Virus record (IMG/VR): IMGVR_UViG_3300030419_004179
Location: 11,357-35,060 of that record
DNA length: 23,704 nucleotides
Strand: one strand, 5' to 3'
Source of the DNA: a virus
The translations under genes were made by a program, and so were the position numbers. The notes beneath the pieces were generated by a model, which did not search any database, was not told the DNA's origin, and was given only the letters and a program-made list of their open reading frames with translations. Positions 5,120 through 23,704 of this stretch are shown piece by piece. The first letter of the stretch is position 1. Each line of letters starts with the position of its first letter.

Positions 5120-6532
5120 GTGAAAAAAATTAATAAAAACAACGACAAGCCCAAAATACTGCTTTTATCTGATGATTTAAGAATGCATTCGGGTATTGGA
5201 ACTCAATCAAAAGAGTTTGTAATGGGAACTTTACATAAATATGAATGGGTTCAAATAGGTGGAGCTATTAAACATCCTGATGAAGGTAAATTGATAGATA
5301 TGAATAAAATCGTCAGAGAAGAGACTGGAATTGATGATGCTTATTTAAAAATATATCCAACATCTGGTTATGGTTCACCTGATATGTTAAGACACATAAT
5401 GCAAATAGAAAAACCAGACGCTATAATACATTTTACAGACCCAAGATTTTGGATTTGGTTGTATCAAATGGAACACGAAATAAGACAAGACATACCTATT
5501 ATGTATTATAACATTTGGGATGACTTACCTGACCCATTGTATAACTCAAATTATTACAGAAGCTGTGATATGTTATTATCAATTTCAAAACAAACTTATG
5601 GTATTAATAAAAGAATACTTTCTAAATATGGTTATGAAGACTGGCAAATACAATATGTCCCTCATGGAGTTTCATCTAAGAAGTTTTTTATCGTTGATAA
5701 GGGTGACACGAAGTTCAGAGAGTTTGAACAAAAACATGGATTAGATAAATATAAATTTAAAATACTTTATTTGAATAGAAATGTTCGTAGGAAGTCACCT
5801 GGTGATGTTGCTCTTGCTTACAAACATATGATGGATAAACTTACACCTGAACAAAGAAAAGAGTGTGTATTTGTTTGGCACGCTGCACCTATTGATGATA
5901 ATGGGACAGATATGAAAGCTGTGTGTGAAGCAATGTTACCTGAATATCCTGTTATTTTTACTTATGATACAGCTGGTGGTCCTATGAGTGATGAAGAGAT
6001 AAACTATTTATATAATTCCATAGATGTTTATATTAATCTTGCATCAAATGAGGGATTTGGATTAGGTTCACTGGAAGCACTCACAGTGGGAAAACCAATC
6101 GTAGTAAATGTTACTGGTGGATTACAAGATCAATGTGGATTTATGGATGTAGACCCAGCAGGTGGTGCTTTTAGATATTTAAATGCTGACGATTATGTTG
6201 AACTAAAATCTAATCATAGAGCAACATATAGACAACATGGTAAGTGGGTGATGCCCGTGTTTCCAAGTAACATAAGTTTACAAGGTTCACCACAAACACC
6301 ATATATCTTTGATGACAGATGTAGTTATGAAGATGGTGGTACAGCACTATTAGCGTGGTATAAATTAGGAGACGAAAAAAGAAAAGAATATGGAGAAGTT
6401 GGAAGGCAATGGGTTATGAGTGATGATGCTAGAATGACTTCAAAACATATGTCAGATTCATTTATAAAAAATATAGATAGATGTTTTGAAAAATGGAGTC
6501 CTAAAAAAAGATATACAATGGAGGTTGTGTAA
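5120..6532 (+). CDS. GT-B glycosyltransferase, GT4-like (470 aa)
   Basis: A two-domain GT-B enzyme. The N-terminal Rossmann half begins KILLLSDDLRMHSGIGTQSKEF, with the glycine loop that touches the acceptor in GT4 enzymes. The C-terminal half carries LYLNRNVRRKSP, then YINLASNEGFGLGSLEAL around residue 310, the E-x7-E motif that contacts the donor nucleotide sugar, followed by GKPIVVN. No membrane segment. The start is GTG at 5120, with GAAAGG at 5107-5112 seven bases upstream. The stop overlaps the next start by one base, so the two GT-B genes are coupled. The acceptor could be a glycan, a virion protein or modified DNA; the sequence does not decide. Confidence 0.85.
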   Translation: MKKINKNNDKPKILLLSDDLRMHSGIGTQSKEFVMGTLHKYEWVQIGGAIKHPDEGKLIDMNKIVREETGIDDAYLKIYPTSGYGSPDMLRHIMQIEKPDAIIHFTDPRFWIWLYQMEHEIRQDIPIMYYNIWDDLPDPLYNSNYYRSCDMLLSISKQTYGINKRILSKYGYEDWQIQYVPHGVSSKKFFIVDKGDTKFREFEQKHGLDKYKFKILYLNRNVRRKSPGDVALAYKHMMDKLTPEQRKECVFVWHAAPIDDNGTDMKAVCEAMLPEYPVIFTYDTAGGPMSDEEINYLYNSIDVYINLASNEGFGLGSLEALTVGKPIVVNVTGGLQDQCGFMDVDPAGGAFRYLNADDYVELKSNHRATYRQHGKWVMPVFPSNISLQGSPQTPYIFDDRCSYEDGGTALLAWYKLGDEKRKEYGEVGRQWVMSDDARMTSKHMSDSFIKNIDRCFEKWSPKKRYTMEVV

Positions 6533-11234: not shown

Positions 11235-12884
11235 ATGAAAATAGTAGGATTTCAATCAGGACACGATGTTTCTTACGCTATTTTAGAAAATGGTGTTCCT
11301 GTGATACACGAAGAATTGGAAAGATTTACAAGAGAAAAAGAACCTTTAGGTGATGGTTTAGAATTCTTTTTTAAACAAAATCCTAATATGGATGATGTCA
11401 AACATTTTACATTTGGAAATCCTGGTGGTCGTTCAGGTAAATGGGTTGATGAATGTTACTCTCAATGGTCTCAAGATAAAATGGAAGATATGGTTTCTAA
11501 AAATAATGGTAAGTATCATATGATAGGACACCATCAATCACATGCAGCAAATGCTTTTTATTCAAGTAATTTTGAAGAGTCATTAATTATAACGATTGAT
11601 GGGGGTGGAACAGAGGAGGATGGTAGTACAACATCATTCACGGTTTGGAATGGGAAAGGAAACAAAATAGAACCTGTTAAAATTATCCCTTTGAGAGAGT
11701 TAAATATAGGTTCTCCCTGGAGAAAATATACTGGTGAAATTTTTGGATTATCAAACAAACACCCTAAAGGAAACCAAGCTGGAACAGTTATGGGTATGGC
11801 TTGTGTTGGTGAACCAAAATACACAAAAGATTTTTATGATGCATTTACTGGTCATTTGTGGCAAGTTGAATCAGGTAGAGGAAATTTTAATCCAGGAGAT
11901 TTATGTCAAGCTTACAGACCTATAGCTGACAGAAGTGAACAAGATAAATTTGACATTGCTGCTTCTCTCCAATTAGCTACTGAGAAATTGGTAAGAGAAC
12001 TTATGACACCATTTGTATCACAATCAAAAATGAAAAATTTATGCTTATCAGGTGGTGTTGCTTTAAATTCTGTTATGGTTGGTAAAATGTATGAATGGTT
12101 TGATGGTATTATAGAAAACATATATGTAGATCCAATTCCATATGATGGTGGTTTAGCTCTTGGTTCCGCTAGATATGTTTGGCATCATATTTTAGATAAT
12201 CCAAGAATAGAGTGGAAAGATAATTCATCTTCTTATTTAGGACGCACATATAATGGTGGATTGGTAAAACAATCATTAGACAATTCAACAAAAATATTAG
12301 ATGACTTAGATAAACATAATTGTAAATTAAAATACAGTGAAGCCACTGATGATGATGTTATTGAGTTATTATCCAAAGATGATAATGTTATATCAGTATT
12401 TGGTGGAGGATCTGAATCAGGTAGGAGAGCTCTTGGTAACAGAAGTATATTAGCTGACCCAAGAAGTCCGAAGATGAAAGACATAATTAATGAAAAAGTA
12501 AAACATAGACAATGGTTTAGACCATTCGCTCCTTCTATAATAAGAGAAGAGGTTAAGAATTGGTTTAAACGAGATATAGATAGTCCTTATATGAGTTTTG
12601 TTTTGGATTGGAAAGATGATATGAAAGATAAAGTTCCTGCTGTTGTTCATTTAGATGGAACTGCCAGATTACAAACTGTTACAGAAAATGATAATAAATG
12701 GTATTATAATTTTATTAAAAAGTTCGGAGAAAAAACTGGTGTACCAATTGTGTTGAATACAAGTTTCAATGACAGAGAACCTATTGTTGAAACACCAGAA
12801 CATGCTATAAATTGTTTTCTTGGGACTGATATAGATTATTTATATTTTTATGATGAAAATATACTCGTGGAGAAAGTAAGTTGA
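11235..12884 (+). CDS. O-carbamoyltransferase, TobZ/NodU/CmcH family (549 aa)
   Basis: Transfers a carbamoyl group from carbamoyl phosphate, through carbamoyl-AMP, to a hydroxyl of a sugar or other small molecule. Landmarks: N-terminal GFQSGHDVSYAILENG; HHQSHA at 99-104 with D122 (metal ligands of the TsaD/Kae1-like half); GGVALN at 273-278 and D304; GRRALGNRSILADPR near 397-410; FRPFAPS at 428-434; and LNTSFNDREPIV near the end. Length matches the family (about 550-570 aa). AGGAGA at 11225-11230 gives the gene one of the clearest ribosome binding sites here. A second, shorter homologue lies at 21795. Surrounded by glycosyltransferases, the simplest reading is sugar carbamoylation; carbamoylation of hydroxymethylated DNA bases is a known alternative in other phages. 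Confidence 0.93.
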   Translation: MKIVGFQSGHDVSYAILENGVPVIHEELERFTREKEPLGDGLEFFFKQNPNMDDVKHFTFGNPGGRSGKWVDECYSQWSQDKMEDMVSKNNGKYHMIGHHQSHAANAFYSSNFEESLIITIDGGGTEEDGSTTSFTVWNGKGNKIEPVKIIPLRELNIGSPWRKYTGEIFGLSNKHPKGNQAGTVMGMACVGEPKYTKDFYDAFTGHLWQVESGRGNFNPGDLCQAYRPIADRSEQDKFDIAASLQLATEKLVRELMTPFVSQSKMKNLCLSGGVALNSVMVGKMYEWFDGIIENIYVDPIPYDGGLALGSARYVWHHILDNPRIEWKDNSSSYLGRTYNGGLVKQSLDNSTKILDDLDKHNCKLKYSEATDDDVIELLSKDDNVISVFGGGSESGRRALGNRSILADPRSPKMKDIINEKVKHRQWFRPFAPSIIREEVKNWFKRDIDSPYMSFVLDWKDDMKDKVPAVVHLDGTARLQTVTENDNKWYYNFIKKFGEKTGVPIVLNTSFNDREPIVETPEHAINCFLGTDIDYLYFYDENILVEKVS

Positions 12885-14310: not shown

Positions 14311-14969
14311 TGAAATTTACTTTTGGAATAATTACTTCGTCAATAGTTCCTAATAAGGTAATTGAATCTATTGTAAATCAAAACATACCTGAATATGAAA
14401 TAATAATTGTTGGTGGTGATAATGAGTATAAAAATTATGATGTAAATCATTTTCATTTTGATGAGACAAGTGGAAAATTTACTGCTAAAAAAAATGGTAT
14501 AACTAGACACGCAAAATATGAAAACATTGTTTATATGCACGACTATTATTTTTTAAAAGAAAATTGGTATGAAGGGTTTAAAGAATTTGGAAATGATTGG
14601 GATATATGTATGAATATTATTTTAAATCAAGATAACTCAAGGTTTAGAGATTGGATAATATGTTATGACAGAGATTTAGAGTCGAGAGATTTTTCATTAG
14701 ATGAAGTTAGAAAAGGAAGACCTACAAGATATTTACCACCATATAATTATAACAAAACAAAAAATATGTACATATCGGGTGGTTATTGGGTAGCAAAAAA
14801 ATATGTGATGGAAGAGGAGAGATTGGATGAGAACTTGGGTTGGGGTGAAGCAGAAGACTATGAATGGTCTGAAAGAGTTTTGTGGAATGAAAAATATAGA
14901 TATAAGATGAACATTCACTCTACTGTTCAGACATTAAAAGATAAAAGACTTTCGGCGGAGATTTTATGA
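14310..14969 (+). CDS. GT2-like glycosyltransferase (219 aa)
   Basis: GT-A-type enzyme: N-terminal KFTFGIITSSI and EYEIIIVGGDN (the first nucleotide-binding loop), then ENIVYMHDYYFLKENWYEGF where H77-D78-Y replaces the usual DxD, and a well-conserved MYISGGYWVAKKYVM followed by GWGEAEDYEWSERV (around 184-197) as the acceptor/catalytic ED motif. Length is minimal for the family. The degenerate DxD could mean altered metal use. A weak AAGGG about nine bases upstream and overlap with the preceding stop mark the start. One of at least five GT-A-type genes in the cluster. Confidence 0.76.
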   Translation: MKFTFGIITSSIVPNKVIESIVNQNIPEYEIIIVGGDNEYKNYDVNHFHFDETSGKFTAKKNGITRHAKYENIVYMHDYYFLKENWYEGFKEFGNDWDICMNIILNQDNSRFRDWIICYDRDLESRDFSLDEVRKGRPTRYLPPYNYNKTKNMYISGGYWVAKKYVMEEERLDENLGWGEAEDYEWSERVLWNEKYRYKMNIHSTVQTLKDKRLSAEIL

Positions 14970-16339
14970 TAAAATTAATTATATTTGATTTAGATGGGGT
15001 ATTGGTAGATGCTCGTGAATTACATTATAAAGCTTTAAATAAAGCACTTGGTTCTATTGATAAGAAGTATGTAATACAACGAGATGAACACTTGTCTACA
15101 TATGATGGGTTATCTACAACAAAAAAATTAAATATGTTAACAAATAAAAAAGGTTTACCAAAAGAATTACATAATAGTGTTTGGAAATTAAAACAAGAGA
15201 TGACCAAAGAATTACTTGATGGTGCTGATATGGATAACAAGATGCAGAGTATGTTAAGAAGTTTTAAGTCGAATGGATATACAATAGCTTGTGCTACTAA
15301 TTCTATTAGAGAAACTGCTAAATTACACCTAATTAGAAAAGGTTTATTTGAATATATTGATTTTATGTACTCTAATCAAGATGTTAAAAATCCAAAACCA
15401 AATACTGAAATGTATTTAAAATGTATGATTAAAGCTGAAGTAAATCCAAATGAAACATTAATAGTTGAAGATTCACATATAGGAAGAAGAGCAGCCTTAA
15501 ACAGTGGTGCTTATCTATGTGGTGTTGAAGATTATAATGATGTTTCTCATGATAAGATAAAAAAAGCTATAGCAGAAATAAATAACAAAGCAGACAGAAA
15601 ACCAAAATGGCAAGGAGGAAATATGAATGTATTGATACCAATGGCGGGAGCAGGTTCAAGATTTGAAAAAGCAGGATACACATTCCCTAAACCGCTTATA
15701 GATGTCAATGGGAAACCTATGATACAAACAGTAGTTGAAAATTTGAATATAGATGCTAAACATATTTTCATTGTTCAGAAAGAACATTATGAAAAATATA
15801 ATTTAAAATATCTATTGAATTTAATTACGGATAATAATTGTGAAATAGTTCAAGTAGATGGTATTACAGAGGGAGCAGCTTGTACTACATTGTTAGCGAA
15901 ACAATACATTGATAATGATGAACCATTAGTTATGGCTAATTCAGACCAATTTGTTGAATGGGATTCAAATGAGTTTATGTATTCTATGACAGCTGATGAT
16001 GTCGATGGTGGTATATTATCATTTGAAGCGACACATCCAAAATGGTCATTTGCTAAATTAAATGAAGATGGATTTGTGTCAGAGGTAGCGGAGAAGAAAC
16101 CAATATCTAATATAGCTACTGTTGGTGTATACTATTGGAAAAAAGGTTCTGATTATGTTAAGTATGCGGAGCAGATGATTGATAAAGATATTAGAACAAA
16201 TAATGAGTTCTATGTTTGTCCTGTATTTAATGAAGCTATTGGTGATGATAAGAAAGTAAAAGTATTTCCAATTGAAAAGATGTGGGGATTGGGAACTCCT
16301 GAAGACTTAAATAATTATTTAAAAAATAAGGAATTATAG
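14966..16339 (+). CDS. HAD phosphatase-sugar nucleotidyltransferase fusion (457 aa)
   Basis: Two complete enzymes in one frame. Residues 1-215 are a haloacid-dehalogenase-type phosphatase or mutase: FDLDGVLVD with D8 and D10, ATN with T111, K144 (NPKP) and VEDSHIGR with D169 are motifs I-IV. Residues 220-457 are a nucleotidyltransferase of the glucose-1-phosphate type: LIPMAGAGSRF (223-233), F-PKPL around 240-244, then VMANSDQF and a late WGLGTPEDL. The junction carries a strong Shine-Dalgarno and an in-frame ATG (Met220), so the second domain may also be made alone. Likely role: dephosphorylating and activating a sugar or related metabolite for the cluster. GGAG at 14957-14960 precedes the ATG. 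Substrates not known. Confidence 0.87.
   Translation: MIKLIIFDLDGVLVDARELHYKALNKALGSIDKKYVIQRDEHLSTYDGLSTTKKLNMLTNKKGLPKELHNSVWKLKQEMTKELLDGADMDNKMQSMLRSFKSNGYTIACATNSIRETAKLHLIRKGLFEYIDFMYSNQDVKNPKPNTEMYLKCMIKAEVNPNETLIVEDSHIGRRAALNSGAYLCGVEDYNDVSHDKIKKAIAEINNKADRKPKWQGGNMNVLIPMAGAGSRFEKAGYTFPKPLIDVNGKPMIQTVVENLNIDAKHIFIVQKEHYEKYNLKYLLNLITDNNCEIVQVDGITEGAACTTLLAKQYIDNDEPLVMANSDQFVEWDSNEFMYSMTADDVDGGILSFEATHPKWSFAKLNEDGFVSEVAEKKPISNIATVGVYYWKKGSDYVKYAEQMIDKDIRTNNEFYVCPVFNEAIGDDKKVKVFPIEKMWGLGTPEDLNNYLKNKEL
15612..15625 (+). promoter_or_regulatory. Internal Shine-Dalgarno and start codon at the domain junction
   Basis: AAGGAGGAA at 15612-15620, followed by the in-frame ATG at 15623-15625, sits exactly between the HAD and nucleotidyltransferase domains. 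Spacing from the last G of the GGAGG to the ATG is four bases, slightly short. It is the best ribosome binding sequence in the region, yet it lies inside an uninterrupted gene. It suggests either that the two genes fused recently by loss of a stop, or that a stand-alone nucleotidyltransferase of about 238 residues is also produced. Confidence 0.6.
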
Positions 16340-16340
16340 G

Positions 16341-17465
16341 TTGGTATCTGAAAAAATAAATGTTAATTTTGATGGTTTTGAATATCCGATTTTAATTGGT
16401 AAAAATGTTGTTAATAATATATTAGACATTGTGAAACAAAAAACACAAAATAAAAAAATTGTTATCATAAGTGATGAATATTTTAAAAAGAATGCAGTAA
16501 ATAATATATCTTCAATATTTGAATCTGAATCATATGAAGTCTATTTTTATTTTATGGATGCGGGAAAAGGAAATAAAAGCTTTAATGAAGTTTTAAACAT
16601 ATACGAATTATTAGAGAAAAATGAAGTAGCTAGAGATTCAACTATAATTTCTATTGGTGGTGGTGTGGTTGGTGACTTAGCTGGGTTTGTTGCTAGTACC
16701 TGGTTTAGAGGAATGAATTTAGTACACATACCAACTACATTGACAGCTATGGTAGATAGTAGTATTGGTGGTAAAGTAGCAGTAAATCTAAATAAAACGA
16801 TAAATGCTGTTGGAAATTATCATCATCCAATATTAAATTTAATAGATTTAAATTTTATAGAAACTCTACCTGATAGAGATTATAAAGCTGGTATAGCAGA
16901 AATAATAAAATGTGCTATTATTTCAGATGAAAGTTTTTTTAATTATTTAATGAAAAATAACGATAAAATATTGAATAGAGAAGAAAAAAATTTAATAGAT
17001 ATTATTACTCGTTCAATAGAAATTAAAATAAATCATGTTGAAGGGGATGTACGAGAAGGTAATAAAAGATTATTTTTAAATTATGGACATACATTAGGTC
17101 ATTCTGTTGAGATTTCAACTCAAAAGAATGGTGAAGAGACATTTAGACACGGAGAAGGAGTCGCAATAGGTATAATGGCTGTAGATTATATAGCTAACAT
17201 TTATTTTAATACAGAATGGGAATCAGAGAATTTATTTAAAAAAATATTTGATTTATATGATTTACCATCTTTTGTAGATTCTTCTAAAATAGGGTTTGAG
17301 AGAACAAATTTATTAAAAGAGTGTTTAAAAAATGTCAAAAAAGATAAAAAAAGAATTAATAATAATTTAAGATTAATTTTGTCTAAAAGATTGGGTGAAG
17401 CTTCTGCACACAATGATGTACCTTTTTCATTAATAGAAGAAGCTTTCAATAAAATAATAAAATAA
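16341..17465 (+). CDS. aroB: 3-dehydroquinate synthase-family enzyme (374 aa)
   Basis: A sugar-phosphate cyclase of the DHQ-synthase family (NAD-dependent DAHP to 3-dehydroquinate). Visible: SIGGGVVGDLAGF (104-116); PTTLTAMVDSSIGGKVAVN with D139 and K145; AEIIK with E187 and K190; K229 in IEIK; and EGNKRLFLNYGHTLGH with R243, N247, H250, H254, then H270-G-E. These match the DHQS active-site residues as I recall them, including the carboxylate-binding set. One position differs: the Lys of the usual GKN triplet after GGKxxVN appears as Ile154 (N155 kept). Family members that cyclise other sugar phosphates exist, so the product is probable, not certain. TTG start, with TAAGGA at 16327-16332 eight bases upstream. 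A DAHP synthase lies two genes downstream. Confidence 0.86.
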   Translation: MVSEKINVNFDGFEYPILIGKNVVNNILDIVKQKTQNKKIVIISDEYFKKNAVNNISSIFESESYEVYFYFMDAGKGNKSFNEVLNIYELLEKNEVARDSTIISIGGGVVGDLAGFVASTWFRGMNLVHIPTTLTAMVDSSIGGKVAVNLNKTINAVGNYHHPILNLIDLNFIETLPDRDYKAGIAEIIKCAIISDESFFNYLMKNNDKILNREEKNLIDIITRSIEIKINHVEGDVREGNKRLFLNYGHTLGHSVEISTQKNGEETFRHGEGVAIGIMAVDYIANIYFNTEWESENLFKKIFDLYDLPSFVDSSKIGFERTNLLKECLKNVKKDKKRINNNLRLILSKRLGEASAHNDVPFSLIEEAFNKIIK

Positions 17466-18205
17466 TGAAAGATAAAGTTTGTATAATAACAGGTTCAGGT
17501 AAAGGTTTCGGATTAGAGACAGCAAAAACTTTTGCTAAAAAGGGAGCTAAATTAGCACTGATAAGTAGAACAAAAGAAGATTTGATAAGATTAGAAAATG
17601 AATTAAATATAGGTGATAATTTAATTTGGATGGATGGGGATGTGTCAGATTCTAGAGTTGTAGATGAATTTGTTTCAAAAACATATGACTTTTATGGTAA
17701 AATAGATATTTTATTTAATAACGCTGGAATGAGATTTAGAAAAGGTTTTTTAGATACAACATATGACGAGTGGAAAAAAGTAATAGATAATAATTTAGGA
17801 AGCACATTCTTATTTTGTCAAGCTGTTGGTAGATATATGATTAAACAAAAATATGGAAAAATAATCAATATGTCATCAATAGTTGGTACATTGGGTTTAC
17901 CAGAATTATGTACATATGGAGCATCTAAAGGTGGGATAATTGGTTTAACAAAATCTTTATCTTTAGAATGGGCTGAACATAATATTAATGTTAATGCAAT
18001 AGCTGCTGGTTTTTGTAAAACATCCTACTTTGATAATTTTAAAAAAAATAAAGAATTGTATGACTTTACATTAGATAGAATACCAATGAAAAAATGGGGA
18101 GATCCATCAGATATAGTAAATGCTTGTTTGTTTCTTGCTTCGGATTCTTCTAAATATATGACAGGGGAAGTTCTAACAATAGATGGGGGGTGGAGTGCAT
18201 GGTAA
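17465..18205 (+). CDS. Short-chain dehydrogenase/reductase (246 aa)
   Basis: Classical SDR with all expected landmarks: TGSGKGFG (9-16) cofactor loop, R35 after the second strand suggesting NADP(H) preference, NNAG (86-89), N110, S138, and Y151-GAS-K155. The C-terminal TGEVLTIDGGWSAW is the usual end of classical SDRs such as FabG-like enzymes. The start overlaps the TAA of the cyclase gene by one base and no ribosome binding site is visible, so it is translated in tandem with it. In context it may reduce or oxidise a hydroxyl or ketone of the cyclase product or another cassette sugar; substrate not readable. Confidence 0.92.
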   Translation: MKDKVCIITGSGKGFGLETAKTFAKKGAKLALISRTKEDLIRLENELNIGDNLIWMDGDVSDSRVVDEFVSKTYDFYGKIDILFNNAGMRFRKGFLDTTYDEWKKVIDNNLGSTFLFCQAVGRYMIKQKYGKIINMSSIVGTLGLPELCTYGASKGGIIGLTKSLSLEWAEHNINVNAIAAGFCKTSYFDNFKKNKELYDFTLDRIPMKKWGDPSDIVNACLFLASDSSKYMTGEVLTIDGGWSAW

Positions 18206-18846
18206 AAGATAGATGTTTTATTTTAGGTACTAGTCCTGGTATTTTGGATATAGACTTATCATTATTAAAAAATGAAATAACAATTGGAATGAATAATATA
18301 TTAAGGTCTGGTTTTGTTCCAAATTATCTATGTGTAAGTGATGGATATCTTATAGAAAGAGACTTTAACCATATATTTTCTGATTCTATGATAGATAGAC
18401 AATATGTATTTTGTGATAGGTGGATTCAATATGATGGTAAATTAAAGGAACATTTAGATAATAAATTTAATATTATGTACATTCCAAATGTTGAAAAAGA
18501 AGATGAAAGTTATTATATAGATCCTGATTTAAAAAGCATTACATTTACAGGGAGTACATCAGTTCATGATTTATCAGTTCCATTAGCTGTACATTTGGGG
18601 TTTAAACAAATATATTTGTTGGGTTGTGATGGTGGCACACATCATTTTTATGATGAAGATAAATCTTATGTACAAAGAATGAATGAAAATTTTGAAAAAA
18701 AATGGCCTGGTAGACAAGGTAGATATAAACATGTTACTGAATGGTTAGATAAATTTGGAGTAGAGTTGTTTAATTCTGATCCATCAAATAGATTGAAAGA
18801 CATAGAATATAGAGATTTTAATAAAGTAATATCAATGAGGAGTTAA
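18199..18846 (+). CDS. MptE-like/DUF115-type protein, possible glycosyltransferase (215 aa)
   Basis: The opening CFILGTSPGILDIDLSLLKN and TIGMNNIL, with the later FTGSTSVHDLSVPLAVHLGF and IYLLGCDGG...HFY, fit the DUF115/6-hydroxymethylpterin-diphosphokinase-like (MptE-like) superfamily, which includes motility accessory factors and relatives of bacterial sialyltransferases that modify with nonulosonic acids. A nucleotide-binding Rossmann-like core is expected, with D48 in VSDGY and D158 in GCDGG as candidate site residues. The ATG at 18199 is used instead of an in-frame GTG at 18190: the G-rich run 18185-18190 ends eight bases before it. It overlaps the SDR stop. In a cluster with a CMP-sugar-synthetase-type gene, a transferase using the CMP-sugar is an attractive inference. 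Confidence 0.6.
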   Translation: MVKDRCFILGTSPGILDIDLSLLKNEITIGMNNILRSGFVPNYLCVSDGYLIERDFNHIFSDSMIDRQYVFCDRWIQYDGKLKEHLDNKFNIMYIPNVEKEDESYYIDPDLKSITFTGSTSVHDLSVPLAVHLGFKQIYLLGCDGGTHHFYDEDKSYVQRMNENFEKKWPGRQGRYKHVTEWLDKFGVELFNSDPSNRLKDIEYRDFNKVISMRS

Positions 18847-18849
18847 GTT

Positions 18850-20346
18850 ATGAAAATATTTTTATTTATAAAAGAAAAATCGGAGAGATTAAATAAAAAA
18901 AATTTTTTACAATTGGGTGGGCTTGAATTATACAAACACACTCTATTGAAGTTAAAAAACTTTGATGTTTATTTGGATACGGATAGTAAACAAATTTATA
19001 ATGAATGTAAAAACAACAATAATTTGTCTCATGTAACTTGTTACTTGAGGAAAAGAAAATATATAGATATGGAATTGAGTGACAAAGAATATGGTCCAAC
19101 TCTTTTAATGACTAGAGATTTTTTAGATGAGTATGTATCTGATGAAAATGAACCAATTGTTTTAACTCATGTAACTTCACCATTTTTAAAAGTATCTACT
19201 ATATTAGATGCAGTAGAAAAACTTGAGGGATACGATTCTGTTTGTTCAATAAGTGAAATTAAATCTTTTGCATTAAGAAAAAAACACAACAAATATGAAC
19301 CTATTAATTTTGATATAAAAGGATTACAAAAATCACAAGTTTTAGATTCAATAGCTCATTTAAATTCTGCATTCTTCATCTTTACCAAAAAAAGTTTTAT
19401 TGAGAATGATAATAATAGAATAGGTGAAAATCCTAACTTTTATAAAATCCATTTTCCAGAAGATTTGGATATAAACTATGAAGAGGATTATTTAATAGCT
19501 GAGAAACTTATGGATGAACATAAACCAGATGACAAAGTTCAAAGATATGTGGTTAGTAGAGAATATAAAGATGATAATTCAGTTTTTGATGTTAATGGTA
19601 TTAAGTTTGGTGGTGATAATAAAGTGATAATAGCTGGACCTTGTGCTGTTGAAAGTAGAGAACAATTGTTTAGAATAGCAGAAAAAGTAAAAGGACTTGG
19701 TGCTGACATGTTGAGAGGTGGAGCTTATAAACCGAGAACATCCCCCTATTCATTTCAGGGATTAGGAGAAGAAGGACTTAAAATACTAGCCGAAGCTCGA
19801 GATAAATTTAATCTACCATTTGTTACAGAAGTTATTGATGAAGAAAGTGCTAAGTTAGCTTTTAATTATGCAGATATGTTTCAAATTGGAACAAGAAATA
19901 TGCAAAATTATTCTCTATTAAAATTTTTAGGAAAAATGAATAAACCTGTTATATTAAAAAGAGGTATGTGTGCAACTTTAAAAGAGTTTATGATGTCGGC
20001 AGAATATTTAATGTCGAGTGGTTGTGAAAAGGTAGTACTTTGTGAGAGAGGAATTAGAACATTTTCTGACCATGCTCGTAATGTATTAGATATAGGAATA
20101 ATACCAGCTATTAAAAAGGATAGTCATCTTCCAATTATTGTAGACCCTAGTCATGCGAGTGGTTATAACTATAGTGTGGTATCTCATGCACTTGCTGGTT
20201 TAGCTGCTGGGGCGGATGGAATGATTGTAGAAGTACATGATTGTCCAGAGGAAGCATTAAGTGATGGACCCCAAGCTTTATTGCCAAAACAATTTTCAGA
20301 TTTAGTTAAATATTCTAAAGGAATTATAGAGGTACTTAAAAAATGA
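18850..20346 (+). CDS. Fusion: CMP-sugar synthetase-like domain + type I-beta DAHP synthase (498 aa)
   Basis: Residues 1-225 resemble acylneuraminate/Kdo cytidylyltransferases: IKEKSERLNKKNF (a divergent P-loop-like start), VYLDTDS, LTHVTSPF, LNSAFFIF and DINYEEDYLIAEKLM. Residues 256-498 are a 3-deoxy-7-phosphoheptulonate synthase: IIAGPCAVES, LRGGAYKPRTSPYSFQGLG, LKRGM, LCERGIRTF and DPSHASGYN. Metal-ligand spacing (C265, H435, E461, D472) exactly equals that recalled for the Thermotoga type I-beta enzyme (C102, H272, E298, D309). RGGA and KPRTS mark erythrose-4-phosphate, not Kdo-8-phosphate, chemistry. The cytidylyltransferase occupies the position of the usual small regulatory domain. 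AGGAG at 18838-18842 lies seven bases before the ATG. The pairing suggests CMP-activation of a DAHP-derived sugar acid; this is inference. Confidence 0.88.
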   Translation: MKIFLFIKEKSERLNKKNFLQLGGLELYKHTLLKLKNFDVYLDTDSKQIYNECKNNNNLSHVTCYLRKRKYIDMELSDKEYGPTLLMTRDFLDEYVSDENEPIVLTHVTSPFLKVSTILDAVEKLEGYDSVCSISEIKSFALRKKHNKYEPINFDIKGLQKSQVLDSIAHLNSAFFIFTKKSFIENDNNRIGENPNFYKIHFPEDLDINYEEDYLIAEKLMDEHKPDDKVQRYVVSREYKDDNSVFDVNGIKFGGDNKVIIAGPCAVESREQLFRIAEKVKGLGADMLRGGAYKPRTSPYSFQGLGEEGLKILAEARDKFNLPFVTEVIDEESAKLAFNYADMFQIGTRNMQNYSLLKFLGKMNKPVILKRGMCATLKEFMMSAEYLMSSGCEKVVLCERGIRTFSDHARNVLDIGIIPAIKKDSHLPIIVDPSHASGYNYSVVSHALAGLAAGADGMIVEVHDCPEEALSDGPQALLPKQFSDLVKYSKGIIEVLKK

Positions 20347-20781: not shown

Positions 20782-21681
20782 ATGTCTAATAAAACAATAA
20801 TAACAGGTGGATGTAGTTTTGTACACTCTTCTGATACTTGGGCTGTTCAATTGAAAGAATTTACAGATTCTAACATTATTAATGTTGGAATAACAGGTGG
20901 AGGAAATGATTTAATTTCAAGGGCTGTGATTCATAAAACAAATGAGCTTTTAAATAATGGTAAAAAAGCAGAAGATATTTTTGTTTTTGTATCTTTATCT
21001 GGTTTAGAAAGAACAAGTTTTTTAGTTAATAAGGATTGTACTACTTATGATGACATTTCTCATTTTAATAATAGTAATGATAATCTATCTGATGATTTTG
21101 AATATAAATGGGGTGGAGCTAGGTATTGGGGAAATTTTGTTGATTCTGAAGATACCTTTTGGGCTCAATTTTTGGCTCACACTGTAGATAGAAGTGAAAT
21201 GATTCAAAAATATTTTGAATATATTTATAATGATGAATATCATTTTTTAAATACATTAGAACATGTATTAAGATTACAATGGTTTTTTAAATCTCATAAT
21301 ATCAGATATAAAATATTCACTGGTTGGGATATATTGACATATATTGATGAAGAACATTTACCTAAAAAGTTTTTAACATCTATGAAACATAAACAGTTTC
21401 AATGGGATGTAAAATATGAGAGTAATATAAACGAATTAAATAAAGATAGATATAAAAATTCAACTCATCTGTGGGACATGATTGACTTTGATGATTTTTG
21501 GGTTTTTAATAATGATAAAATTAGATATGGTGGTTTATTACAATGGGTTCAATATAATGTAGCGGTAGAAGATTGGTACAGAGCTAGAGATGACAGACAT
21601 CCATCTTTCAAAGCTCACAGAGAATTTTGTAAACAAGTAATAATTCCATTGATGGGAGATTGGTATGAAAAAAATAATTAA
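20782..21681 (+). CDS. SGNH-hydrolase-like protein (299 aa)
   Basis: N-terminal TIITGGCSFVHSSDTW holds the block-I nucleophile (S12 in GCSF); INVGITGGGNDL gives the Gly and Asn of blocks II/III; and the C-terminal DDRHPSFKAH, with D270/D271 and H273, supplies block V. These are the landmarks of SGNH/GDSL esterases, often sugar O-deacetylases or O-acyl enzymes in glycan loci. I chose ATG 20782, one base after the preceding stop; ATG 20767 is an alternative, and the longer in-frame extension back to 20689 would overlap the GDPD-like gene without support. No signal peptide, so cytoplasmic or virion-associated. A second SGNH-like gene starts at 23261. Confidence 0.72.
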   Translation: MSNKTIITGGCSFVHSSDTWAVQLKEFTDSNIINVGITGGGNDLISRAVIHKTNELLNNGKKAEDIFVFVSLSGLERTSFLVNKDCTTYDDISHFNNSNDNLSDDFEYKWGGARYWGNFVDSEDTFWAQFLAHTVDRSEMIQKYFEYIYNDEYHFLNTLEHVLRLQWFFKSHNIRYKIFTGWDILTYIDEEHLPKKFLTSMKHKQFQWDVKYESNINELNKDRYKNSTHLWDMIDFDDFWVFNNDKIRYGGLLQWVQYNVAVEDWYRARDDRHPSFKAHREFCKQVIIPLMGDWYEKNN

Positions 21682-21784
21682 TTTCTTTTTGAGTTTTTCA
21701 TTTATAAAAAACTTATACAGAAAATATTTAACTAAAAAGAAAATGAAGTCAATTAAAGATAAAGATCCATTCATTTATAAGTAA
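21665..21784 (+). CDS. Small basic protein, 39 aa
   Basis: A 39-residue ORF from ATG 21665 to TAA 21784, with GGGAG at 21654-21658 six bases before the start, overlapping the end of the SGNH-like gene. The N-terminus is hydrophobic (IINFFLSFSFIKNLY), followed by a strongly basic stretch (RKYLTKKKMKS) and a KDPFIYK end. It could be a membrane-peripheral or amphipathic peptide. It fills the gap before the second carbamoyltransferase exactly, which argues for a true gene. I have a weak memory of similar short proteins in marine phages, but no family name. Confidence 0.65.
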   Translation: MKKIINFFLSFSFIKNLYRKYLTKKKMKSIKDKDPFIYK

Positions 21785-21794
21785 AGGTATAATT

Positions 21795-23264
21795 ATGAGA
21801 ATATTAGGAATAAATTGTTTAAATCATGATGCAGCAGTTTCTGTTATAGAAGATGGAGATATAAAATTTGCTGGTCATTCGGAAAGATACAGTCGTAAGA
21901 AAAATGATATGTTTCTGAATGATGGTATAATGGATGAAGCTCTATCTCATGGACAACCTGATATTGTTGCATACTTTGAAAGGCCGTGGTTAAAGAAATC
22001 TCGTCAGTTATATGCTGGACAATACAATGAAGTATTTCAGACAGCTAACACTCCAAAAAATTATCTTAAAAGATGGTTAGGTGATACTAAAATTCAATAT
22101 GTTCAACATCACGAAAGTCACGCTTCTGCTGGTTATTATACATCACCATTTGATGAGGCTTGTATCGTTGTGATTGATGCTATAGGTGAATGGGAAACGG
22201 TATCTATATGGTATGGTAGAGGTAACAACTTAGAAAAAAGATGGAGTCAGAAATATCCTAAATCACTTGGTTTATTCTATTCAGCTATGACTCAAAGACT
22301 TGATTTAAAACCACAAGAAGATGAATATATTTTAATGGGAATGGATGCTTGGGGAGTTAGAGATGAAAAGATAAAGAATCAAATATATAATGATTTGGTT
22401 GCAAGTAATGTAAATCTTCATCGTGGTTGTTTAAATTGGAATTTAGATTTTTATCCTGATGATGGTTCAGAACAATGGAAATTTGATATAGCTTCTAACA
22501 CACAATGGGTTGCTGAAGATGAGATTATGAAAATTATGAATAAAGCAAAACAGATTGTTCCTGAATCAAGAAATCTTGTATTTATGGGTGGAGTTGCTCT
22601 TAATTGTGTAGCTAATGAAAAGATTGCTAAAGATATAGAATGGGACGACATTTGGATAATGCCAAATCCTGGTGATGCTGGTTCTTCTCTTGGTTGTGCT
22701 GCTAGGGTATACGGTAAGAAAATCAATTGGGTACATACATTTCTTGGAACTAATATTAAAGGAAGCTATCCAGTAAAAAAAGCAAGTGATTTATTAATAC
22801 AAGGTGAACTTATTGGTATTGCTAATGGTAGAGCTGAGTTTGGTCCAAGGGCATTAGGTAATCGTTCTCTAATTGCAGACCCGAGAGGTAATGACATAAA
22901 AGATAGAATGAATGTGATAAAGAAAAGACAAAAGTTTAGACCATTCGCTCCATCAGTTTTAGAAGAACACGCTCACGAGATATTTGATTTACCAGTGAAG
23001 AAGGCTTCATATATGCAATTTACAGCTAAATGTAAGTTTCCTGATAAGTATCCTGCGATATGTCATGTAGATGGGACTTCAAGAGTTCAGACAATTAATA
23101 GAAAAGAAAATCCTGGATACTATGATATGATTAAAAGATTCTATAAAAAGACTGGATGTCCTATGGTATTAAATACAAGTTTAAATATTAAAGGGCAACC
23201 AATAGTAAATACAAAACAAGATGGTAAAGATTTTGAAAAACATTATGGGGTAAAAGTTCTGTGA
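21795..23264 (+). CDS. Second carbamoyltransferase, TobZ/NodU family (489 aa)
   Basis: A second O-carbamoyltransferase, diverged from the one at 11235. Same landmarks: GINCLNHDAAVSVIEDG; HHESHA at 105-110 with D128; FMGGVALNCVAN (GGVALN 265-270) and D294; FGPRALGNRSLIADPR; FRPFAPS; and LNTSLNIKGQPIVN. It is about 60 residues shorter, with most of the loss in the N-terminal half between conserved blocks and in a shortened C-terminus ending HYGVKVL. AAAGG at 21783-21787 lies seven bases before the ATG. Flanked on both sides by SGNH-like genes, which suggests a carbamoyl/acyl decoration module. Divergence from the first copy argues for a different acceptor. Confidence 0.92.
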   Translation: MRILGINCLNHDAAVSVIEDGDIKFAGHSERYSRKKNDMFLNDGIMDEALSHGQPDIVAYFERPWLKKSRQLYAGQYNEVFQTANTPKNYLKRWLGDTKIQYVQHHESHASAGYYTSPFDEACIVVIDAIGEWETVSIWYGRGNNLEKRWSQKYPKSLGLFYSAMTQRLDLKPQEDEYILMGMDAWGVRDEKIKNQIYNDLVASNVNLHRGCLNWNLDFYPDDGSEQWKFDIASNTQWVAEDEIMKIMNKAKQIVPESRNLVFMGGVALNCVANEKIAKDIEWDDIWIMPNPGDAGSSLGCAARVYGKKINWVHTFLGTNIKGSYPVKKASDLLIQGELIGIANGRAEFGPRALGNRSLIADPRGNDIKDRMNVIKKRQKFRPFAPSVLEEHAHEIFDLPVKKASYMQFTAKCKFPDKYPAICHVDGTSRVQTINRKENPGYYDMIKRFYKKTGCPMVLNTSLNIKGQPIVNTKQDGKDFEKHYGVKVL

Positions 23265-23704
23265 TATGGACAACTAAATTAGATGATTTAAGTGGAGGAA
23301 AGGTTCTATATGCTAATGGATGTAGTTTTACTATTGGTGATGAGTTAGCTAATCCAAAAAGTCAGGCTTTTCCAACTTTGTTAGGAAACAATATGAATTG
23401 TGATTTTGTAGTGAATCAAGCTAGATGTGGAGCTTCTAATCATGAGATATTGAGAAAGACTATGGATTTCTTGTTAGAGTATATTCATACAAAAGAGTTT
23501 GATGTAAAGGATTTAACTGTTGTCATTGGTTGGAGTTTAGTTTCAAGGCATGAATATTATGATGAAGGTTGGAAAGGTATTACACCAAACTCAGTAAGTA
23601 GTGCTGAAGATTTACCATATTACTATTACGGATTATTACAATCTAATGAACAAGATATGTTAAGATTTTTATGGCAAGTAAATGTTTTACAGAGTTTTTT
23701 AAAA
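23261..23704 (+). CDS. SGNH-hydrolase-like protein, 3' end beyond window
   Basis: An open frame of 148 codons from GTG 23261 to the window edge with no stop. The N-terminus VLYANGCSFTIGDELA carries the block-I nucleophile (S22 in GCSF), and NQARCGASNHEIL the block with Gly and Asn, as in the SGNH-like protein at 20782. TVVIGWSLVSRHEYY matches the third strand. The GTG overlaps the carbamoyltransferase stop (GTGA), and GGGG at 23247-23250 may serve as ribosome binding site. The His-containing block V would lie outside the window. Confidence 0.74.
   Translation, partial: MIWTTKLDDLSGGKVLYANGCSFTIGDELANPKSQAFPTLLGNNMNCDFVVNQARCGASNHEILRKTMDFLLEYIHTKEFDVKDLTVVIGWSLVSRHEYYDEGWKGITPNSVSSAEDLPYYYYGLLQSNEQDMLRFLWQVNVLQSFLK

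What the first reader, a model, noticed from the sequence alone, without database searches (positions are those of the whole stretch)
20782..23704. SGNH - small peptide - carbamoyltransferase - SGNH block
Two SGNH-like genes bracket the second carbamoyltransferase and a 39-aa gene. Carbamoyltransferases and SGNH esterases both act on hydroxyls of sugars, so they may add and remove, or place competing, groups on one glycan. The regular arrangement suggests a transferable module.
Basis: partly seen in the sequence, partly recalled or inferred. Interest (0 to 1): 0.5.

Follow-up and report, generated by a model that had tools for sequence, protein, structure and literature searches.

The report
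Phage carbamoyltransferase with a partner micropeptide
A marine phage carries a carbamoyl-adding enzyme flanked by two esterase-like genes and a 39-residue protein, and that tiny protein belongs to an undescribed family whose invariant last six residues (DPFIYK) recur beside this enzyme type in many phages and some bacteria, sometimes fused to the esterase itself.

Summary
The four-gene block is real: SGNH-like gene, 39-aa gene, O-carbamoyltransferase (CTase), SGNH-like gene cut by the record end, overlapping or nearly so. The important part is the 39-aa gene. It ends DPFIYK. All 120 hits end small ORFs; 89 have a CTase in the locus, always downstream on the same strand, 44 of them within 9 bp. 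No Pfam, PHROG or NCBIfam model covers the peptide. The partner CTases form one well-supported clade (A). In bacterial loci the same tail is fused to the C-terminus of an SGNH protein beside a clade-A CTase (L184, L185, L196, L202), which links all three parts. SGNH genes are about five-fold denser within 1.5 kb of clade-A CTases than farther out and nearly absent beside other CTases, but only 10 of 78 loci of the SGNH1 family have such a CTase, so the link is one-sided. Best reading: the peptide is an adaptor whose tail docks on the CTase and couples it to SGNH or other partners. Docking was not shown: AlphaFold was inconclusive. The add-and-remove idea is untested. A known parallel is the saxitoxin sxtI-J-K-L block.

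The parts
20782..21681 (+). SGNH1: SGNH/GDSL-like protein, 299 aa (block I GGCSF, block V DDRHPS)
21665..21784 (+). 39-aa micropeptide, new family; basic and hydrophobic N-terminus, conserved C-terminal tail
21764..21781 (+). DPFIYK tail, invariant motif of the micropeptide family
21795..23264 (+). O-carbamoyltransferase of the short clade A, 489 aa, TobZ/GdmN-type
23261..23704 (+). SGNH2: DUF6071 protein, truncated by the end of the virus record

Best explanation
The 39-aa protein is an adaptor for the carbamoyltransferase encoded next to it. Its C-terminal DPFIYK tail docks on the clade-A CTase (inferred). Its variable N-terminal half, usually a basic/aromatic helix but in some members an acidic helix, a Cys-rich segment, or in bacteria a whole SGNH domain, ties the CTase to a partner or to a membrane (inferred). 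The module most likely O-carbamoylates hydroxyls of a phage-encoded or phage-modified glycan, with the SGNH proteins acting on the same or a neighbouring hydroxyl as O-acyltransferase, esterase or decarbamoylase (inferred from families and neighbours). Shown: the gene order, the invariant tail, its coupling to one CTase clade, its fusion to SGNH proteins, and the enrichment of SGNH genes beside that clade.
For: Scrambled motif with the same codon classes: 1 match. 79 distinct 24-mers encode the one peptide, so the amino acids are conserved. The tail is the C-terminus of SGNH proteins L184, L196 and L202 (DUF6071 4e-51, 3e-31, 1.5e-37) and L185 (GDSL_2, weak) beside clade-A CTases. Tail within 1.6 kb: 22 of 42 viral and 15 of 31 bacterial clade-A loci, 0 of 34 long-type. 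SGNH density 0.196 per kb within 1.5 kb of viral clade-A CTases against 0.010-0.056 beyond; long-type 0.011. Clade A is monophyletic. Same order SGNH-peptide-CTase in GenBank virus MH319727. Many glycosyltransferase and sugar genes in the window.
Against: Docking was not seen: in the AlphaFold model of peptide + read-through linker + CTase (L066) the tail block has pLDDT 52 (helix end 67) with one backbone bridge whose partner I could not identify. 31 of the 95 distinct clade-A C-termini counted come from loci with no tail within 1.6 kb; of the 15 viral records of tail-less loci searched for the looser motif, 14 have none anywhere (the exception, L027's record, has it; its locus is cut at the CTase). 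The tail also occurs away from CTases: fused to an AdoMet decarboxylase (L141, L161) and on a Cys-rich peptide (7 of 120), in short records without a CTase. L352 pairs a tail with a long-type CTase. Only 26 of 120 tails have an SGNH gene directly beside them. No activity is known for any member.
Confidence: 0.52

Rival explanations
1. The micropeptide is the substrate, not the adaptor: the CTase carbamoylates it, for example on the tail tyrosine or lysine, like a precursor peptide.
For: Small gene, conserved tail, usually immediately upstream of the enzyme.
Against: The tail is also a C-terminal extension of SGNH proteins and of an AdoMet decarboxylase; the fold is that of TobZ/GdmN/NovN, whose known acceptors are small molecules (acceptors from general knowledge). 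No transport or protease genes were looked for.
Confidence: 0.1
2. The tail is a general sorting or assembly tag read by a third phage or host component, such as a sliding clamp or scaffold, and the CTase is only its commonest neighbour.
For: Tail on SpeD-type and Cys-rich proteins in records without a CTase; tails away from the CTase in L070, L293, L355.
Against: 89 of 120 tails have a CTase in the locus, always in one orientation. In bacterial isolates without an obvious phage context the tail still sits beside a clade-A CTase. Those records without a CTase are mostly short fragments.
Confidence: 0.2
3. The genes are only co-located in a phage glycan-modification cassette; SGNH, peptide and CTase have no direct physical link.
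For: SGNH1's family mostly occurs without a CTase (68 of 78 loci have no clade-A CTase); SGNH genes are missing beside many peptide-CTase pairs.
Against: SGNH-tail fusions beside clade-A CTases; SGNH is nearly absent beside long-type CTases (1 of 34).
Confidence: 0.15
4. The CTase modifies DNA, as the phage 5-hydroxymethylcytosine carbamoyltransferase does (PMC8670742, passages read).
For: Phage CTases with this role exist; the record has a Mom-like DNA-modification gene and a 2OG-Fe(II) oxygenase.
Against: That paper ties the DNA-modifying branch to neighbouring thymidylate synthase; none is in this 35-kb record, which is a fragment. Residues it flags (TobZ G421, R423) are C and T in its printed enzyme by my motif alignment (GPRALCNT), but G and R in the window CTase (GPRALGNR), as in most of clade A.
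Confidence: 0.08

Closest known systems
sxtI-sxtJ-sxtK-sxtL block of the saxitoxin cluster (PMC2679770, PMC2684587, passages read)
   Same: An O-carbamoyltransferase gene with small proteins of unknown function said to act 'in conjunction', followed by a GDSL-lipase gene to which decarbamoylation is assigned.
   Different: Gene order and small proteins differ; that CTase comes from a cellular cluster. I did not fetch or compare those genes.
DUF5989 (PF19451), small membrane protein
   Same: Small companion of carbamoyltransferases; 28 of 30 fetched loci end in PF[IV]Y plus three residues, and 21 of 30 have a CTase within about 1.5 kb.
   Different: Has a transmembrane helix; goes with long-type CTases that keep their own last strand; no micropeptide tested matched PF19451.
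TobZ / GdmN / VtdB / NovN O-carbamoyltransferases (class III)
   Same: Fold and both domains (Foldseek E 5e-37 to 4e-33).
   Different: Clade A ends 30-36 residues after the NTS[LM]N motif; the 32 distinct long-type C-termini listed run 38 or more.
DUF6071 / SGNH-GDSL hydrolases
   Same: Block I Ser and block V His; profile match to solved SGNH enzymes.
   Different: Block III is not the usual GxND; the Asp is not conserved in SGNH1's family.
Phage 5hmC carbamoyltransferase (PMC8670742)
   Same: Phage-encoded class III CTase.
   Different: Different neighbours and specificity residues.

Membership tests
Class III O-carbamoyltransferase (NodU/TobZ) | Carbam_trans_N and Carbam_trans_C domains | tested here: met
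   PF02543 3.5e-41, PF16861 3.6e-55
Class III O-carbamoyltransferase (NodU/TobZ) | TobZ/GdmN fold | tested here: met
   Clade-A model L066 matches 7vzq, 3ven, 9s2t; the window's own CTase was a row of the alignment, not the modelled protein
Class III O-carbamoyltransferase (NodU/TobZ) | Carbamoyl transfer activity | not testable with these tools
   needs assay
SGNH/GDSL hydrolase, SGNH1 | Ser block I and Asp-x-x-His block V | tested here: met
   Ser12, Asp270, His273; Asp at -3 in 5 of 12 relatives
SGNH/GDSL hydrolase, SGNH1 | Own match to a curated SGNH or DUF6071 model above cut-off | tested here: not met
   DUF6071 16.3 bits, cut-off 27; linked only through SGNH2's family
SGNH/GDSL hydrolase, SGNH1 | Block III Asn (GxND) | tested here: not met
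   Position holds WSGLxR-like sequence; block assignment is mine
DUF6071, SGNH2 | Pfam model above cut-off | tested here: met
   51.3 bits, cut-off 27
SGNH/GDSL hydrolase, SGNH2 | Complete Ser-Asp-His set | tested here: inconclusive
   Gene cut at record end
DUF5989 / SxtK-like companion, 39-aa gene | PF19451 match and transmembrane helix | tested here: not met
   No Pfam match; no TM-length hydrophobic stretch seen in the sequence
DUF5989 / SxtK-like companion, 39-aa gene | C-terminal PFIY next to a carbamoyltransferase | tested here: met
5hmC carbamoyltransferase | Thymidylate synthase/dCMP hydroxymethylase neighbour | tested here: inconclusive
   None in the 35-kb record, which is a fragment
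sxtIJKL-type block | Sequence relation of small proteins and GDSL protein | not tested
   Toxin-pathway genes not fetched

The most novel reading that the evidence does not exclude
DPFIYK is a mobile docking tail: evolution attaches it to different proteins (micropeptide helix, SGNH enzyme, AdoMet decarboxylase, Cys-rich domain) to plug them into one clade of carbamoyltransferases. That clade has lost the C-terminal segment of other carbamoyltransferases (typically a strand like G-D-F-L-V-x-K), and the tail may supply it in trans. The clade's nearest outgroup in the tree is a carbamoyltransferase paired with DUF5989, which carries a PFIY tail too.
Probability: 0.22. Interest if true: 0.78.

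Novelty: new variant of a known kind. Interest (0 to 1): 0.58.

Why it matters
It names an abundant, unannotated small-protein family of aquatic phages and gives it a likely partner. It also offers a testable answer to why carbamoyltransferases, including the saxitoxin one, travel with tiny proteins and GDSL/SGNH enzymes. If the tail docks, it is a handle for finding and controlling carbamoylation modules and for predicting which SGNH proteins work with them.

Tried and rejected
Rejected or weakened: (1) missing-strand complementation as the main claim: the CTase modelled alone keeps the same C-terminal strand as with the tail, and L352 has both its own strand and a tail; kept only as the novel case. 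(2) The peptide as an obligatory membrane anchor: L023, L160 and L314 have acidic, non-membrane N-termini. (3) DUF5989 membership: no match. (4) DNA modification: see rivals. (5) Named phages: tblastn of two peptides found nothing; among 6 named-phage CTase regions fetched, 1 (MH319727) has the tail.

Led nowhere: close-relative scans with SGNH1 and SGNH2 alone; mixed alignment A2, which misaligned CTase rows; paper searches for DUF5989 (0 papers), DUF6071 (0), PFIY (55 papers, the 15 listed unrelated by title), SGNH + carbamoyltransferase + phage (1, unrelated by title), O-carbamoyltransferase + small protein (the 10 listed do not hold the enzyme's name). A phylum/order search for clade-A CTases around Geodermatophilus was read only from its table; its loci L258-L287 were not analysed.

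Biases: the SGNH set (145 ORFs) was grown from seeds mostly beside CTases, so distant SGNHs may be missed. The tree set (tail in 56 of 67) includes many loci found through the tail, and five loci were set to 'tail' by hand because it lies farther off or on a downstream SGNH. Near-copies are not removed from the locus counts; deduplicated by HMM score pair, the viral CTase set gives tail 17 and SGNH 18 of 34. Fisher p-values ignore relatedness. CTase rows containing X or cut by locus ends were left out of the alignments (99 kept as candidates, 67 after an 82% identity filter). The tail regex tallies ask for [DE][PH][FYHW][ILVM][YFH] within three residues of the stop.
Full report
WHAT IS THERE. 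The window is the last 23.7 kb of a 35,060-base virus record that also carries a DNA polymerase, processivity factor, DnaB-like helicase, ribonucleotide reductase and clamp loader, so it is a tailed-phage-like genome fragment. In the finding's interval lie four ORFs on the + strand: SGNH1 20782-21681, a 39-aa ORF 21665-21784, a carbamoyltransferase (CTase) 21795-23264, and SGNH2 from 23261 to the record end. They overlap by 17 nt, are separated by 10 nt, and overlap by 4 nt, as in a co-translated operon. The CTase has both class III domains. SGNH2 is a DUF6071 protein over Pfam's cut-off; SGNH1 is below it but its family aligns to SGNH2's family with 99.8% probability, and that family matches solved GDSL/SGNH enzymes; SGNH1's family alone matched no hydrolase in the PDB. 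SGNH1 keeps Ser, Asp and His; in its 12-member alignment Ser and His are invariant, while Asp at -3 is present in 5 of 12 by my reading. SGNH2 is cut before its Asp/His region.

THE SMALL GENE IS THE KEY. The 39-aa protein ends in DPFIYK. Small ORFs with the same ending turned up beside related CTases with quite different upstream neighbours (primase-like, sugar-isomerase-like, DUF1289, SGNH; names other than SGNH are my reading of the sequences). All 120 are in-frame C-termini of small ORFs (27-162 aa, 111 of them up to 70 aa); 109 different peptides; 89 have a CTase in the locus held, 89 of 89 downstream and on the same strand, 32 overlapping by 4 nt and 12 at 3-9 bp. Of the other 31, 11 records hold a CTase elsewhere, so 100 of 120 records have one; L105 additionally has a CTase fragment directly downstream that my model missed. 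A scrambled motif with the same codon classes gave 1 match in the whole collection. The 120 sites use 79 different 24-mers for the same residues, so selection acts on the peptide. None of the members tried has a believable match in Pfam, PHROGs or NCBIfam (chance-level hits only).

LINK TO SGNH. In bacterial contigs the tail is the C-terminus of an SGNH protein encoded beside the CTase: L184 (Magnetococcales), L196 (Antrihabitans cavernicola) and L202 (an actinobacterial MAG) are DUF6071 proteins ending DPFIYP or DPFLYP, and L185 (Geodermatophilus amargosae) is a weak GDSL_2 match ending DPFIY; L179 looks like a broken fifth case. In L196 and L202 the SGNH gene lies downstream of the CTase. 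Such fusions are classical evidence that separate proteins work together. SGNH genes lie within 3 kb on the same strand in 22 of 42 viral and 18 of 31 bacterial clade-A loci, against 1 of 34 long-type loci; density within 1.5 kb is 0.196 per kb (viral) and 0.208 (bacterial), against 0.010-0.056 and 0-0.026 farther out. SGNH-peptide-SGNH-CTase, the nearest match to the window's set, recurs in L117, L125, L148 and others. A GenBank single-cell virus (MH319727) has SGNH-peptide-CTase. The converse is weak: of 78 loci found with SGNH1's family, 10 have a clade-A CTase and 14 a tail. Only 26 of 120 tails have SGNH directly next to them. So SGNH is a frequent but replaceable partner.

THE CTASE CLADE. 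The partner CTases form one side of a branch with full support (67 clade-A against 33 long-type rows, FastTree). All 95 distinct clade-A C-termini counted (64 from loci with a tail, of which 45 were printed, and 31 without; those printed end 30-36 residues after NTS[LM]N) are short, whereas the 32 long-type ones run 38 residues or more and typically end in a strand like G-D-F-L-V-x-K. The nearest outgroup of clade A in that tree is L224 (support 92), whose CTase is followed by DUF5989, a small membrane protein ending SPFIYVLF. In 30 DUF5989 loci from that phylum, 28 end in PF[IV]Y plus three residues and 21 have a CTase within about 1.5 kb. Two kinds of tiny protein with a PFIY ending thus accompany two kinds of CTase. 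The window's other CTase (11235-12884) is long-type and has no tail.

MECHANISM. I propose that the tail docks on the clade-A CTase and the rest of the peptide, or the fused SGNH, is what is being brought to it. I tried to see this with AlphaFold on peptide + 52-codon read-through linker + CTase of L066: CTase blocks mostly above 90, peptide helix 89-84-67, tail block 52, linker below 50, one backbone bridge at the tail's Ile. The control without the peptide has the same C-terminal strand, so the idea that the tail completes that strand is not supported; new bridges at Y150, K306 and Q377 leave the partner open. The result is inconclusive. What is shown is genetic linkage, conservation and fusion; docking, recruitment and chemistry are inferred.

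SUBSTRATE. Glycosyltransferase and sugar-nucleotide genes fill the window, which favours a glycan hydroxyl. A DNA role, as for the 5hmC carbamoyltransferase of PMC8670742 (passages read), is less likely: no thymidylate synthase in the record and TobZ-like specificity residues, though the record is incomplete.

KNOWN PARALLEL. In the searches I ran I found no paper on the peptide; most subscription journals are not in that library.

VERDICT. The new element is a widespread, unannotated micropeptide family with an invariant tail, tied to one carbamoyltransferase clade and fused to SGNH proteins in bacteria.

Noticed in passing
window 16341-20346: The phage encodes AroB over NCBIfam's equivalog cut-off (307.8 against 305 bits) and a DAHP synthase domain over cut-off (361 against 268) fused behind a cytidylyltransferase-like domain, with an SDR gene between: the first two shikimate-pathway steps in a phage.
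   Followed up: no
window 14966-16339: One ORF joins a HAD phosphatase domain to a sugar nucleotidyltransferase domain.
   Followed up: no
L141:6029-6541 and L161:5638-6123: AdoMet decarboxylase (SpeD-like) with the DPFIYK tail fused at its C-terminus, near capsid-region genes; in L112 a Cys-rich peptide with the same tail follows a SpeD-like gene.
   Followed up: partly
L023:9750-9986: One ORF holds the tail unit twice in tandem (ELRRRDPFIYR ... ELRRRDPFIYR) next to a CTase.
   Followed up: no
L051, L058, L063, L067, L099, L102, L105, L344: Peptide followed by a CTase ORF of only about 250-340 aa, or a shorter fragment; the C-terminal domain may be encoded separately.
   Followed up: no
L007:5518-10004: Five SGNH-like genes in a row with one micropeptide, directly before a clade-A CTase.
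   Followed up: partly
L176, just upstream of the CTase at 6001: A divergent candidate micropeptide ending PPMLYK directly before a clade-A CTase that lacks the standard tail.
   Followed up: no
L367:3102-3722: Mom-like DNA modification gene in the upstream part of the same virus record.
   Followed up: no
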